Part shown: positions 4,378 to 18,072 of the stretch, one piece after another
Numbering within the stretch: the first letter of the stretch is position 1
Layout: each line of letters begins with the position of its first letter
Origin: Pseudochrobactrum sp. sp1633
Lineage (GTDB): Bacteria; Pseudomonadota; Alphaproteobacteria; Rhizobiales; Rhizobiaceae
Length of the DNA: 64,000 nt
Reading direction: 5' to 3'
Assembly: GCF_030376605.1 (NCBI RefSeq)
Contig: NZ_JARRAE010000012.1
Location: 1-64,000 of the forward strand
Notes under the pieces: generated by a model
Database searches by the model: none
Seen by the model: the letters and a program-made list of their open reading frames with translations, nothing else
Told to the model about the DNA's origin: nothing
Program-made: the position numbers and the translations under genes

Positions 4378-4431
4378 TCTGACGCGGGGCCGTTATCGTC
4401 GCTGTTGCGAAAAGCCGCCCTTTGATCTGAC

Positions 4432-4506
4432 TCCCTCCGCCGGCATTATCCGGTTCAGGTTCAAAGGGTACTTCTCAGCCGGTATGATCCGGGCGCCCCT
4501 GTCTCT
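4432..4506 (-). ncRNA. TPP riboswitch aptamer (THI element)
   Basis: Read on the minus strand, the segment contains the invariant THI-box cores in the right order: a GGGGCGCCC start, CTGAGA, then ACCCTTTGAACCTGA and the closing ATAATGCCGGCGGAGGGA. These form the pyrimidine- and pyrophosphate-sensor arms. It lies about 80 bases upstream of thiM, with the expression platform between them, and is the expected control element for thiamine salvage genes. Confidence 0.97.
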
Positions 4507-4513
4507 CATCTTC

Positions 4514-14446: not shown

Positions 14447-14629
14447 TACAGAGCATTTTGGGCAAGTTTTTCAATTAAAACGATGATTATGACAATTTGA
14501 TGCGTAGGGATGCGTTTTCCCAATCTGAATAAGCAACGCTGCTATGCAAATTTGTCTCTGCTCATTTCTGATCACAAGGGCTATATACAACTCAACAAAC
14601 AACGACATAAAATTTTCTAGGTGAGAAAC

Positions 14630-14776
14630 ATGAACCTGATCCGCTCTTACAATAACTGGCGCCGTTACCGCAGCACAGTAAACGAACTGAACCGCCTCTC
14701 AACACGCGAACTGAACGATCTCGGCATCCTGCCTGCAGAAATTCCGTTTGTAGCTCGCAAGGCAGCTCAGCGCTAA
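14630..14776 (+). CDS. DUF1127 small basic protein
   Basis: A 48-residue protein starting MNLIRSYNNWRRYRSTVNEL and containing LSTRELNDLGI, the core of DUF1127 (YjiS-like) proteins. In Rhodobacter sphaeroides a protein of this family (CcaF1) affects RNA maturation and turnover, and in Agrobacterium small DUF1127 proteins affect phosphate and carbon metabolism. An AGGTGAG stretch precedes the ATG. The gene is directly followed by three CU-rich stem-loops ending in a terminator, the known partnership of DUF1127 genes with cuckoo-type RNAs, so both are probably made from one transcript. Confidence 0.9.
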   Translation: MNLIRSYNNWRRYRSTVNELNRLSTRELNDLGILPAEIPFVARKAAQR

Positions 14777-14792
14777 TAAGAATTACAGAGAT

Positions 14793-14914
14793 ATCAAACC
14801 TGAGCCTCCCTCCTCCTCCCAACTCAGGTTTGATTGAAGACCGGTCTCCCTCCTCCCAACCGGTCATTCATTGTAACGCCCGATGCTCCTCCCAGCGTCG
14901 GGCGTTTACTTTTT
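14793..14914 (+). ncRNA. Array of three anti-Shine-Dalgarno stem-loops (cuckoo/CcsR-type sRNAs)
   Basis: Three consecutive hairpins follow the DUF1127 stop codon. SL1 has a perfect 12-base-pair stem (14793-14804 with 14823-14834) and an 18-base loop; SL2 a seven-base-pair stem (14839-14845 with 14859-14865); SL3 a nine-base-pair stem (14875-14883 with 14898-14906) followed by CTTTTTC, a Rho-independent terminator. Every loop carries the same CTCCTCCC core, complementary to ribosome-binding sites. This matches the CcsR/cuckoo RNA family of alphaproteobacteria, which is processed from a transcript shared with a DUF1127 gene and acts in stress responses. The stem sequences differ while the loops are conserved. 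Confidence 0.88.
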
Positions 14915-14948
14915 CTGCAACCTGAATTTTTTGCTGAAAGCCCGTCAA

Positions 14949-15386
14949 TCAAAGATGGATATAGGCAAAGCCCTGCATTTGCAGGTAGCCAAGTTCTGCA
15001 ACGCCGCTTGGCACAATGTCATTCTCTGCAACGCGGCAGAGATTTTTCGGCTCCAGAGCCCGCGCGCGCAATGTATTAGCGCAGACCAGAAAACGAACGC
15101 CCTGTTCGTGCAAACCATCAAAACGGTTTTTTAGAGTTTCGTCGGCTTCAACAATGCCGAACAGATCAACCCCCGCACCATGACAAACGACATGAATGGC
15201 AAAGCCGTCCGGTGTTGCATCGCTGCGAAGTGCCTGTACATGATTTGTCAGTGATGTGAGCAGACTTGCCATATAGGCTTTTGTGTCTGCGGGGCTCGCA
15301 TTTATATGAGCGCCATTATTATGATAGACGATCCGCTGTTCAACGGGACTGTGATAGCGGTTGTTGTTCAGCGGATCGCTCATCAT
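14949..15386 (-). CDS. DsrE-family protein
   Basis: A 145-residue protein with the DsrE/DsrF-like pattern: RIVYHNNGA near the N-terminus, a middle strand IHVVCHGAGVDLF, then GVRFLVCANTLRAR with the cysteine often involved in sulfur handling, and the ending VPSGVAELGYLQMQGFAYI. DsrE-type proteins carry sulfur or are intracellular oxidation-related proteins of unknown function. Two ATGs (15386, 15383) are possible. It lies downstream of the DsbA-like and DsbD genes on the same strand but is separated from them by a hairpin. Confidence 0.75.
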   Translation of the reverse strand: MMSDPLNNNRYHSPVEQRIVYHNNGAHINASPADTKAYMASLLTSLTNHVQALRSDATPDGFAIHVVCHGAGVDLFGIVEADETLKNRFDGLHEQGVRFLVCANTLRARALEPKNLCRVAENDIVPSGVAELGYLQMQGFAYIHL

Positions 15387-15460
15387 ATTTTTCCATTCAG
15401 AGGACGACGACTTTTGTGTCGTTCACACTTACTGGCAATATTGGTATTACCGGTAAATTC

Positions 15461-15499
15461 CAGAGCGGTATTATACCGAAGGGTAATAAAACCGCTCTG
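15461..15499. terminator. Hairpin after the DsbA-like gene
   Basis: CAGAGCGGT (15461-15469) and ACCGCTCTG (15491-15499) form a perfect nine-base-pair stem with a 21-base loop that can itself partly pair. It lies five bases past the stop codon of the DsbA-like gene, so it probably ends the dsbD-dsbA transcript. Confidence 0.6.
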
Positions 15500-15504
15500 T
15501 CTCG

Positions 15505-16137
15505 TTATTTCGCAGCCTTTTCACGGGCGCGGGCATCAGCAACAGCCATCTTGAAACCGTTATAATCCAAAGCCATTGCACGGAACGGCCCGATCAGATG
15601 GGTTGGAGTGCCCTCAACGCCGATGGACTCCGCCTGCGCCATAACACGTTTAAGCTGCGCAGTGATTTTGCCGTTGTTCTTGTTCAGATCAGCCTGCAAC
15701 TGCTGCATATCAGCGCCAGAGGCTTTGACCGCATCAAGCATCGCCTTTTTTGAGACTTTGCCACCCGGAATAGACATCAGTGCTTTATGCACCAACTCAT
15801 ATTTACCCTGATACTGCGCCGCCAGTGCCAGCTGGGAACCATAGACCGAGGATTCTGTCAGTATCGGCCATTCTTTATAAACAAGGCGGATATTTCCGTC
15901 TTCCTTCACAATCCGCGCCAGATCCACACCGGACTTTTTGCAATAAATGCAGTTATAATCGGTGAAGACAACAATGGTCAGATCACCTTTCGGATTGCCG
16001 CCAAGCGGCGCTTCCGGATCATAGAGAATACCGTTGATATCAACATCCTGCGCAAGCGCTGCCTGTTGTCCGGCGAGCAGCAGAGAAGCACTCAGCGCGA
16101 TGCCGGAGGACACTTGAAGAAACTGGCGGCGTTGCAT
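15505..16137 (-). CDS. Periplasmic DsbA-family thiol oxidoreductase
   Basis: A 210-residue protein. The N-terminus MQRRQFLQVSSGIALSAS resembles a twin-arginine signal, cleaved after about residue 29 (QQAALA). The mature thioredoxin-like domain has the active site TDYNCIYCKKS and a cis-proline loop GVEGTPTHLI, like DsbA/BdbD/ScsC proteins. It probably oxidises or isomerises disulfides in the periplasm. The gene lies 42 bases downstream of dsbD on the same strand, so DsbD may keep it reduced, which would favour an isomerase or metal-stress role. Confidence 0.85.
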   Translation of the reverse strand: MQRRQFLQVSSGIALSASLLLAGQQAALAQDVDINGILYDPEAPLGGNPKGDLTIVVFTDYNCIYCKKSGVDLARIVKEDGNIRLVYKEWPILTESSVYGSQLALAAQYQGKYELVHKALMSIPGGKVSKKAMLDAVKASGADMQQLQADLNKNNGKITAQLKRVMAQAESIGVEGTPTHLIGPFRAMALDYNGFKMAVADARAREKAAK

Positions 16138-16179
16138 TGGGTAACTCCTGTTATACTAAAATAAAATCGCGTGTTGTGT

Positions 16180-18072
16180 TCACAGACCAAGCGCCTGCAA
16201 CCGGTCATTCAGCTTTGCTGAGGTCAGCTCACCGATGACACGGTTATGCGTTTGCTCTTTTGCCGTTTGCGCTTCAAGGAACATCAGCGTTGGCGGGCCG
16301 GCAACATTAAAACGCTGCATCAGATCACGGCTGGCATCCGAATATTCGGTAATATCGGCCTTGATGAGTGTCAGATTGCCGAGCCTCGCCGCATATTCCG
16401 GTTTTTTCATCAGTTTTTCATTGGCCTTGCAGGTCACACACCAGTCTGCGGTGAAGTCAACCAGCACCGGCTTTCCGGTCGCCACGGCTTCGCTCATTGC
16501 CAGATCATATTCGGTTGTCGTTTTGACAATTTTGGCCTGTTGCACCGGTGTGCCCTGAGCAATCTGCGTGGCATTGCCCTGCAAAAAACCTAACGGCTGC
16601 CACGGATCGGTAGAGCCACCAGCAAAACCGACAAGCAGCAATGTTCCGTAAATCAGCGCAACAATACCGGTCGTTTTTTCCACCCGCATCAGCGGCGTGC
16701 TTTTGGTGCTCAACCGGTCGAATACGCCGAGAAACACACCACAGGCCAGCGCCGTAACAGCGAGCAGCAGCATGGCATTTTCATCCGACAGCAGGCGTAG
16801 CACCATATAGATCGCCAGCCCCAGAAACACGACGCCGAAAATCTGCTTGATCGTATTCAGCCAAGGGCCGGATTTTGGCAGGAATTTTGCTCCGAAAGTC
16901 CCAAAGATGATGAGCGGCACGCCCATGCCCAGCCCCAGTGCAAACAAGGCTGAAGCACCGCGCACGGCATCTCCGGTCTGCGCCACGTAAAGCAGAGCGG
17001 CGGCAAGCGGCGGAGTAACACATGGCCCGACAATCAGCGCGGAGCCAAAGCCCAGCAATAACGCGCCGGTGATTGCACCGCCTTTTGCCGATGTGCGGCG
17101 GCTGAAATAGTTCGTCCAGGCTTGCGGCAGCTGCAATTCGTAATAGCCGAACATAGAAAAGGCGAGTGCCACAAAAATCAGCGCCATGAATCCAAGCGCA
17201 TAAGGCGTTTGCAGTGCGGCCTGCAAATTATAGCCGGACCAGGATGCGGCAAAGCCAAGCAGAGCATAGGCAGCAGCCATTGCCACCACATAAGCCGAAG
17301 ACAGCACAAAGCCGCGCCCCGCTGAAAGCTTTTCACCGGAACGGGCAAGCATGCCCGACAGGATCGGGATCATCGGAAACACACAAGGTGTGAGCGCCAG
17401 CAACAGGCCGAAGCCGAAAAATGCAGCCAGCATGAGCGTGAAATTGGAGGCCAGCCATGTGCTGACTTCCTCTGCGCTCACATCTGTCAGGCTTGCGACA
17501 AATCCGGTTTCTGCCGGTGGCGTGCTTGTCTCAGCAAAAGAGGTGTCACCCAGTGACAAATCGGCGACCGGCAGATCAGCCTGCCCCAGCCCGCCAAAAC
17601 CGAGCGCGACCTTTGATATTTCCAGCGTTTGCAGATCAAGCGACTTTGTTACCGGCGGATAGCAGATGCTGTCCTCTTCACAACCCTGATAGCGGATCAG
17701 CACATGGCCGTCTTTTGGCAGGGCACTGTCTGCGACCTGTGCAAAGGCACGGTTATACAGAACCTCTGTGCTGCCGAAGTTCATATCCTCTTTGATAATG
17801 CCCTCAGTCACATCTGCTGGCAAAAGCGTGCCGTCCGGTTTCTCAACCTGTATCTTGTCGCGATACATATAAATCTTAGGTGCAATATTCCACTGCAGCT
17901 GCAACGCATTGTTCGCATCGCGCGCGACGGTCAGTTGCATAACCTCTTCAACACTGCGAACAGATTGTGCCTGCGCCTGAGGGGTAGCAAGAAAAGCAGC
18001 CGTCAAAACAACGGATAAAAAAGCGCTTAAAAAAACAAAGCTGAAAAGCTGTCTGTGAAAATATCGGAGCAT
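16180..18072 (-). CDS. dsbD: Thiol:disulfide interchange protein DsbD
   Basis: A 630-residue inner-membrane reductant relay with all three modules. After a signal segment (residues 1-36) comes the N-terminal DsbD-alpha domain with GCEEDSICYPP; a polytopic core with the cysteine pair in LTPCVFPMIPILSG and VGPCVTPPLAA; and a C-terminal thioredoxin domain with FTADWCVTCKANEK. It carries electrons from cytoplasmic thioredoxin to periplasmic partners. The DsbA-like gene just downstream is a likely client. It is divergent from a two-component system, and the shared region of 230 bases holds repeated CCTTRAGG boxes, so the pair may be regulated together. Confidence 0.93.
   Translation of the reverse strand: MLRYFHRQLFSFVFLSAFLSVVLTAAFLATPQAQAQSVRSVEEVMQLTVARDANNALQLQWNIAPKIYMYRDKIQVEKPDGTLLPADVTEGIIKEDMNFGSTEVLYNRAFAQVADSALPKDGHVLIRYQGCEEDSICYPPVTKSLDLQTLEISKVALGFGGLGQADLPVADLSLGDTSFAETSTPPAETGFVASLTDVSAEEVSTWLASNFTLMLAAFFGFGLLLALTPCVFPMIPILSGMLARSGEKLSAGRGFVLSSAYVVAMAAAYALLGFAASWSGYNLQAALQTPYALGFMALIFVALAFSMFGYYELQLPQAWTNYFSRRTSAKGGAITGALLLGFGSALIVGPCVTPPLAAALLYVAQTGDAVRGASALFALGLGMGVPLIIFGTFGAKFLPKSGPWLNTIKQIFGVVFLGLAIYMVLRLLSDENAMLLLAVTALACGVFLGVFDRLSTKSTPLMRVEKTTGIVALIYGTLLLVGFAGGSTDPWQPLGFLQGNATQIAQGTPVQQAKIVKTTTEYDLAMSEAVATGKPVLVDFTADWCVTCKANEKLMKKPEYAARLGNLTLIKADITEYSDASRDLMQRFNVAGPPTLMFLEAQTAKEQTHNRVIGELTSAKLNDRLQALGL

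What the first reader, a model, noticed from the sequence alone, without database searches (positions are those of the whole stretch)
14630..14914. DUF1127 mini-gene with three anti-Shine-Dalgarno hairpins in tandem
Three stem-loops with unrelated stems but the same CTCCTCCC loop follow a 48-residue DUF1127 gene and end in a terminator. Stem divergence with loop conservation means the loop is the functional part. The layout matches CcsR/cuckoo RNAs, but the first loop is long (18 bases, several overlapping CCTCC units), which could bind two ribosome-binding sites or sequester free 16S 3' ends.
Basis: partly seen in the sequence, partly recalled or inferred. Interest (0 to 1): 0.72.

Follow-up and report, generated by a model that had tools for sequence, protein, structure and literature searches.

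The report
Known ribosome-site-blocking RNA after small-protein gene
This stretch is a small-protein gene joined to a known kind of regulatory RNA whose three loops imitate the ribosome and can cover the start sites of other messages; it is an ordinary member of a described family, with one possibly new clue about what switches it on.

Summary
In detail: window 14630-14914 encodes a 48-aa DUF1127 protein followed by three strong hairpins with CTCCTCCC in each loop, the last a terminator. It is a known kind: Rfam puts 14789-14910 in ar14 (RF02344), 75.3 bits against a cut-off of 58.8, while CcsR1 fails (15.6 against 65.3). Papers of 2011 and 2023 describe such RNAs: hairpins with variable stems and CCUCCUCCC anti-Shine-Dalgarno loops. 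The host is very probably a Pseudochrobactrum. Best mechanism, inferred from the relative NfeR1: the loops block ribosome-binding sites of other mRNAs. Binding of 16S 3' ends fails, as the loops imitate that end. The four CCUCC units of loop 1 look like a Pseudochrobactrum peculiarity. One addition: an LsrB/VtlR-box-like site lies 47 bp before a CTATAT element, and a match with at most 4 mismatches sits at -125 to -75 in 77 of 80 related, non-independent DUF1127 loci (13 of 2080 control windows), all 80 with such hairpins. LsrB/VtlR-activated DUF1127 genes here may thus be two-product units, protein plus RNA. No expression data.

The parts
14534..14548 (+). LsrB/VtlR-box-like site CAACGCTGCTATGCA
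   Evidence: 3 mismatches to the published Brucella box CAATGCAGCCATGCA (for the box); conserved in place in relatives. Binding inferred, not shown.
14581..14586 (+). predicted -10 element CTATAT, 47 bp after the start of the box
   Evidence: TATAT at the same columns in at least 90% of 23 aligned rows; NfeR1 -10 is CTATAT in PMC10746234. The consensus promoter scan did not report it.
14619..14625 (+). likely ribosome-binding site AGGTGAG of the DUF1127 gene
   Evidence: sequence; conserved in at least 90% of 23 aligned rows
14630..14776 (+). DUF1127 gene, 48 aa
   Evidence: Pfam PF06568 54.7 bits; 2-4 synonymous and 0 nonsynonymous codon differences from each of six loci
14789..14910 (+). ar14 RNA (Rfam RF02344)
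   Evidence: 75.3 bits, cut-off 58.8, model positions 1-123 of 123
14793..14834 (+). hairpin 1; loop 14805-14822 CCTCCCTCCTCCTCCCAA
   Evidence: same in L006 and others
14839..14865 (+). hairpin 2; loop 14846-14858 CTCCCTCCTCCCA
14875..14906 (+). hairpin 3, intrinsic terminator; loop 14886-14895 CTCCTCCCAG
14910..14914 (+). T-run of the terminator

Best explanation
It is a unit of a DUF1127 small-protein gene plus an ar14 (NfeR1-type, 'cuckoo') anti-Shine-Dalgarno RNA. One transcript starts near 14593 from a promoter activated by the LysR-type regulator LsrB/VtlR, runs through the DUF1127 gene and stops at hairpin 3; the AU-rich spacer 14774-14792 is then cut (probably by RNase E) to free a three-hairpin RNA. 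Its CUCCUCCC loops pair with GGAGG-rich ribosome-binding sites of other messages, such as transporter mRNAs, and lower their translation. Shown here: the gene, the hairpins, the family match, their conservation together, a box-like site at a conserved place. Inferred: transcription, start site, LsrB control, cutting, targets.
For: Rfam ar14 above cut-off; fold z -9.44; paired changes in helices 2 and 3; 80 of 80 DUF1127 relatives kept by the search (80 of 191 found) carry 1-6 such hairpins within 330 nt downstream; 36 of 62 ar14 loci examined, the three of this genome included, have a DUF1127 frame upstream; box with at most 4 mismatches at -125 to -75 in 77 of 80 loci against 13 of 2080 control windows. 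Silencing through the aSD loops and activation by LsrB were shown for NfeR1 in Sinorhizobium meliloti (PMC10746234; introduction and passages seen). LsrB and VtlR are the same regulator (PMC11975290, passages).
Against: No RNA data for this organism. A review says the NfeR1 locus has six copies in S. meliloti but only one was reliably detected by Northern blot (PMC7143759, passages), so this copy could be silent. The window box has 3 mismatches; the 80 loci are related and 41 are titled Brucella or Ochrobactrum, so 77 of 80 overstates independent support. The promoter scan did not report the predicted promoter, and its single plus-strand hit (14584-14613) is at chance level (mean 0.7 in shuffles); its failure to find a promoter between gene and hairpins is therefore weak evidence for cotranscription. 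NfeR1 is a transcript of its own; release from a DUF1127 transcript was shown for Rhodobacter CcsR, another Rfam family. In B. melitensis a fourth DUF1127 gene lacks the box and rose in the vtlR mutant.
Confidence: 0.85

Rival explanations
1. The hairpins serve mainly as the 3' UTR of the DUF1127 mRNA (stability and terminator), and the C-rich loops act only in cis or bind a protein, with the DUF1127 protein as the working product.
For: DUF1127 proteins have functions of their own: binding of PhoR in Agrobacterium (PMC12501420, passages). The frame differs from six close loci only at synonymous sites.
Against: 26 of 62 ar14 loci examined showed no DUF1127 frame upstream within the fetched flank, one of them in this genome (4 of the 26 have such frames downstream only); NfeR1 acts in trans through its loops.
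Confidence: 0.1
2. The RNA is a CcsR-type stress RNA under RpoH (heat, singlet oxygen), as in Rhodobacter.
For: Same layout: DUF1127 gene, tandem CcsR RNAs, terminator, RpoHI/RpoHII promoter in Rhodobacter (PMC10253847, passages).
Against: CcsR1 model 15.6 bits against 65.3. An LsrB/VtlR-like box at a conserved place. I saw no RpoH-type site by eye and ran no RpoH model.
Confidence: 0.05
3. The loops sequester free 16S 3' ends, or loop 1 bridges two ribosome-binding sites.
For: Loop 1 is long and holds four overlapping CCUCC units.
Against: The loops have the same sense as the 16S tail and do not pair with it (energies +1.6 to +3.8 kcal/mol, tail letters recalled). No evidence for bridging.
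Confidence: 0.01

Closest known systems
ar14 RNA family / NfeR1 (Smr14C2, SmelC397), Rfam RF02344
   Same: Three hairpins, aSD motif in each loop, stems different from each other, about 123 nt; Rfam match above cut-off. A promoter site resembling an LsrB box, as NfeR1 is LsrB-activated.
   Different: NfeR1 is described as a transcript of its own; here the RNA follows a DUF1127 gene. Loop 1 has four CCUCC units, loop 3 lacks the first C of the 9-mer.
Cuckoo RNAs / RFM SmelA075 and SmelA099 (Reinkensmeier 2011; Reinkensmeier and Giegerich 2015) and the CIN1 locus
   Same: Tandem hairpins with a CCUCCUCCC loop and variable stems (PMC3927594, passages); short DUF1127 genes next to CcsR-like RNAs (called CIN1 in PMC10253847, passages).
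   Different: None of substance seen; the 2015 paper itself is not held, so its matcher was not run.
CcaF1-CcsR1-4 of Rhodobacter sphaeroides (RF02791)
   Same: DUF1127 gene cotranscribed with tandem CcsR RNAs, terminator at the end.
   Different: Fails the CcsR1 model; 48-aa against 71-aa protein; LsrB-like box instead of a known RpoH promoter; three hairpins instead of four RNAs.
LsrB/VtlR-activated small-protein genes (Atu1667; BAB1_0914, BAB2_0512, BAB2_0574)
   Same: DUF1127 small proteins (Atu1667 is called an orthologue of BAB1_0914 and BAB2_0512); box-like promoter site.
   Different: The two papers seen treat them as small-protein genes or, for Atu1667, as protein or putative sRNA; the words hairpin, Shine and NfeR1 do not occur in either text. 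Their own DNA was not examined here.

Membership tests
ar14 (Rfam RF02344) | covariance-model score over the gathering cut-off, full length | tested here: met
   75.3 bits, cut-off 58.8, model 1-123 of 123
ar14 (Rfam RF02344) | three hairpins each with an unpaired CCUCCUCCC aSD motif | tested here: met
   Three hairpins; the full 9-mer in loops 1 and 2, only the 8-mer CTCCTCCC in loop 3
ar14 (Rfam RF02344) | LsrB-dependent sigma-70 promoter (as shown for NfeR1) | tested here: inconclusive
   Box-like site with 3 mismatches and CTATAT at conserved places; no binding data; -35 unclear; promoter scan did not report it
ar14 (Rfam RF02344) | expressed small RNA silencing mRNAs in trans | not testable with these tools
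   no RNA data
CcsR1 (Rfam RF02791) | covariance-model score over the gathering cut-off | tested here: not met
   15.6 bits, cut-off 65.3
CIN1 / cuckoo layout | DUF1127 gene followed by tandem CCUCC-loop hairpins | tested here: met
   the published thermodynamic matcher was not run
DUF1127 (Pfam PF06568) | HMM score over the cut-off | tested here: met
   54.7 bits, cut-off 23.3
LsrB/VtlR regulon | VtlR box in the promoter | tested here: inconclusive
   12 of 15 positions match in the window; 77 of 80 relatives with at most 4 mismatches at -125 to -75, controls 13 of 2080

The most novel reading that the evidence does not exclude
In Brucellaceae and relatives the LsrB/VtlR-activated DUF1127 'small protein' genes are two-product units: each also makes an ar14-type anti-Shine-Dalgarno RNA, so that effects put down to the small protein (sugar use, phosphate, stress) may partly or mainly come from the RNA, and LsrB/VtlR would control a battery of ribosome-site-blocking RNAs. 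The long four-unit first loop of Pseudochrobactrum would widen its target range.
Probability: 0.5. Interest if true: 0.45.

Novelty: new member of a known kind. Interest (0 to 1): 0.22.

Why it matters
The RNA itself is a further member of a described family, so the finding as stated is not new. The useful point is the coupling: a paper on Agrobacterium leaves open whether the VtlR-activated gene atu1667 works as a protein or as an RNA (PMC7486931, passages). The conservation of both the frame and the hairpins behind a common LsrB/VtlR-like box in related loci suggests 'both', and says which part to remove to tell them apart.

Tried and rejected
Self-escape of the DUF1127 message: its SD (AGGTGAG) lacks GGAG, as do the 80 leaders (0 of 80, against 67 of 318 background genes taken at the first ATG and 81 of 311 taken at the start with the best SD). 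But the window leader pairs with loop 2 almost as well (-6.4) as with the 16S tail (-6.7), and 29 of 72 (or 50 of 100) background genes of similar 16S energy bind loop 2 as weakly; the 80 are related, so this is not evidence. Dropped. The leader of the second DUF1127 gene binds the loops more strongly (-8.8), also against the idea.

uORF attenuation as in S. meliloti duf1127-1 (PMC12218461, abstract and passages): the predicted leader here is only about 37 nt, so there is no room; rejected by reading the sequence, and dependent on the inferred start site.

Chance: rejected by shuffles and covariation. The count of CTCCTCCC in the genome is ordinary (39 sites, 36 for the reversed control); 8 of the 39 lie in or beside the three ar14 loci. 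The hairpin counts had no shuffle control; they allow one mismatch and stems from 5 bp, and L083's single hairpin (25-nt loop) is weak.

LsrB box in the stand-alone copy of this genome (L001): best match 4 mismatches at -159, not at the expected place; the S. meliloti form of the motif was not scanned. In many other ar14 loci the best match has 5 or more mismatches. L025, L028 and L029 lack the box at the tested place.

Two searches for the 16S 3' end gave nothing, in the own genome and in 25 genomes, probably because rRNA is not held; the tail was taken from memory. The paper search for Smr14C, ar14 and anti-Shine-Dalgarno (two of three terms) gave 0 papers.

Full report
What is there. Window 14630-14776 encodes a 48-aa protein with a DUF1127 domain (Pfam 54.7 bits, cut-off 23.3). 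Three hairpins follow at 14793-14834, 14839-14865 and 14875-14906, each with CTCCTCCC in its loop, and the last is followed by TTTTT. The stretch 14774-14918 folds at -57.2 kcal/mol, z -9.44 against 200 shuffles, none as good. The 9-mer CCTCCTCCC of the literature occurs in loops 1 and 2; loop 3 has only the 8-mer.

Where it is. The DUF1127 protein is 100% identical in six loci, three of them from named Pseudochrobactrum species (P. asaccharolyticum, P. saccharolyticum, P. kiredjianiae). In these six the downstream neighbours agree: DsrE-like in 6 of 6 (66-70% identical), DsbA-like in 5 of 6 (91-93%); the upstream 224-aa frame was found in 1 of 6. That the host is a Pseudochrobactrum is an inference. 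By the genome has three ar14 places at E at most 0.001: the window (75.3 bits), C12:232789 (76.9, no DUF1127 frame found upstream) and C1:233577 (30.9, under the cut-off, behind the second DUF1127 gene).

What family. Rfam gives ar14 (RF02344) for 14789-14910 over the cut-off and full length; CcsR1 (RF02791) fails with 15.6 against 65.3 bits. ar14 was matched in 32 of 41 genomes, own included (25 over cut-off), and in 103 of 297 genomes drawn from the order, own included and partly the same genomes (55 over cut-off, with stricter filters that lose weak matches), and in 0 of 14 control genomes. The link of short DUF1127 genes with CcsR-like RNAs is called CIN1 (PMC10253847, passages). So the finding is a new member of a known kind.

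Conservation. The 80 DUF1127 relatives that the search kept (of 191 found) have hairpins with this motif within 330 nt downstream: 1 in 2 loci, 2 in 14, 3 in 45, 4 in 18, 6 in 1; 243 loops in all (no shuffle control for these counts). On 28 aligned sequences (window and 27 of the 80 loci, chosen by me; 27 distinct) helices 2 and 3 pair in 100% and 99.7% of cells with two-sided changes at 10 of 18 pairs; helix 1 scores 58.3% and is left out of the free consensus fold, which I think is alignment register. Covariation score 0.285 against 0.145 in shuffles, 0 of 500 as high, and 0.055-0.168 in slid versions; related sequences can exceed such shuffles without structure, as the tool warns. The stem of hairpin 2 is nearly fixed among these rows, so 'stems diverge' holds between hairpins of one locus more than between species. 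The frame looks selected as protein: the six loci differ from the window by 2-4 synonymous codons and no nonsynonymous one. Of 62 ar14 loci examined (three of this genome and 59 others), 36 have a DUF1127 frame upstream; 26 do not, 4 of these having such frames downstream.

The long first loop. Its 18 nt are not unusual (26 of 243 loops have 18, 18 are longer), but four overlapping CCTCC units occur in 6 of 243 loops, those of the six loci with the identical protein. It offers more pairing registers; nothing shows a separate function. The loops do not pair with the 16S tail (+1.6 to +3.8 kcal/mol) but do with an ideal SD (-9.2 to -11.5; tail letters recalled), so they imitate the 16S end and would not sequester it.

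The promoter. CAACGCTGCTATGCA at 14534-14548 differs in 3 of 15 places from the VtlR box CAATGCAGCCATGCA quoted for Brucella (PMC12595884, passages). It lies 47 bp before CTATAT, and in 23 aligned rows (window and 22 loci chosen by me) TATAT stands at the same columns in at least 90%. At -125 to -75, 77 of 80 relatives have a plus-strand match with at most 4 mismatches (68 with at most 3), against 13 (4) of 2080 control windows from the same loci; 41 of 41 loci titled Brucella or Ochrobactrum have it. These loci are related, so the counts are not independent. The general promoter scan did not report this promoter. LsrB activates NfeR1 in S. meliloti; VtlR, the same regulator, activates DUF1127 genes in Brucella and their orthologue atu1667 in Agrobacterium, though a fourth Brucella DUF1127 gene lacks the box and rose in the mutant. 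The inference is that this unit is LsrB-activated. The box was not found at the expected place in the stand-alone copy of this genome.

How it most likely works. LsrB-activated transcript, DUF1127 translated, spacer cut, three-hairpin RNA freed, loops blocking ribosome-binding sites of other mRNAs. The last step was shown for NfeR1 (ntrB and two transporter mRNAs; three loops redundant). Cutting by RNase E was shown for the Rhodobacter relative. For this locus all steps beyond the sequence are inferred.

What may be new. The two papers seen on the VtlR-activated DUF1127 genes do not contain the words hairpin, Shine or NfeR1, and one leaves open whether atu1667 is a protein or an RNA gene. Searches for the gene names (2 papers), for the loop motif (3 papers) and for anti-Shine-Dalgarno with LsrB, DUF1127 and sRNA (6 papers) listed no paper that I recognised as making the link, but I read passages only and did not open PMC8844928. 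Papers that could make it are not held or were seen only as references: Reinkensmeier and Giegerich 2015, Gruetzner 2021, Billenkamp 2015, and a 2021 paper on LsrB and many sRNAs of Agrobacterium (listed). The classical Brucella genes themselves were not examined here.

Noticed in passing
window 4415-4510 (-): TPP riboswitch, RF00059, 64.7 bits against a cut-off of 54.3.
   Followed up: no
L007: A contig titled Bacillus subtilis strain SK6B4 carries a Pseudochrobactrum-like locus with an identical DUF1127 protein and the DsrE- and DsbA-like neighbours: probably a mislabelled assembly.
   Followed up: partly
L030: A bin titled Xylophilus carries a DUF1127-hairpin locus like that of Brucella pseudogrignonensis (L032): probably a contaminated bin.
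   Followed up: no
L003, L004, L166 (G000:C1:233577-234039, -): Second DUF1127 gene of the genome with two canonical CCTCCTCCC hairpins, degenerate hairpins and a terminator with a CCCTCCCTCC loop; only 30.9 bits to ar14.
   Followed up: partly
window 14839-14865: The stem of hairpin 2 (GACCGG/CCGGTC) is nearly invariant over the aligned Brucellaceae and Phyllobacterium rows, unlike a stem that only holds up a loop.
   Followed up: no
window 14952-18072 (-): Convergent neighbours: a DsrE-like gene, a DsbA/thioredoxin-like gene, and a long frame that looks DsbD-like by eye.
   Followed up: no
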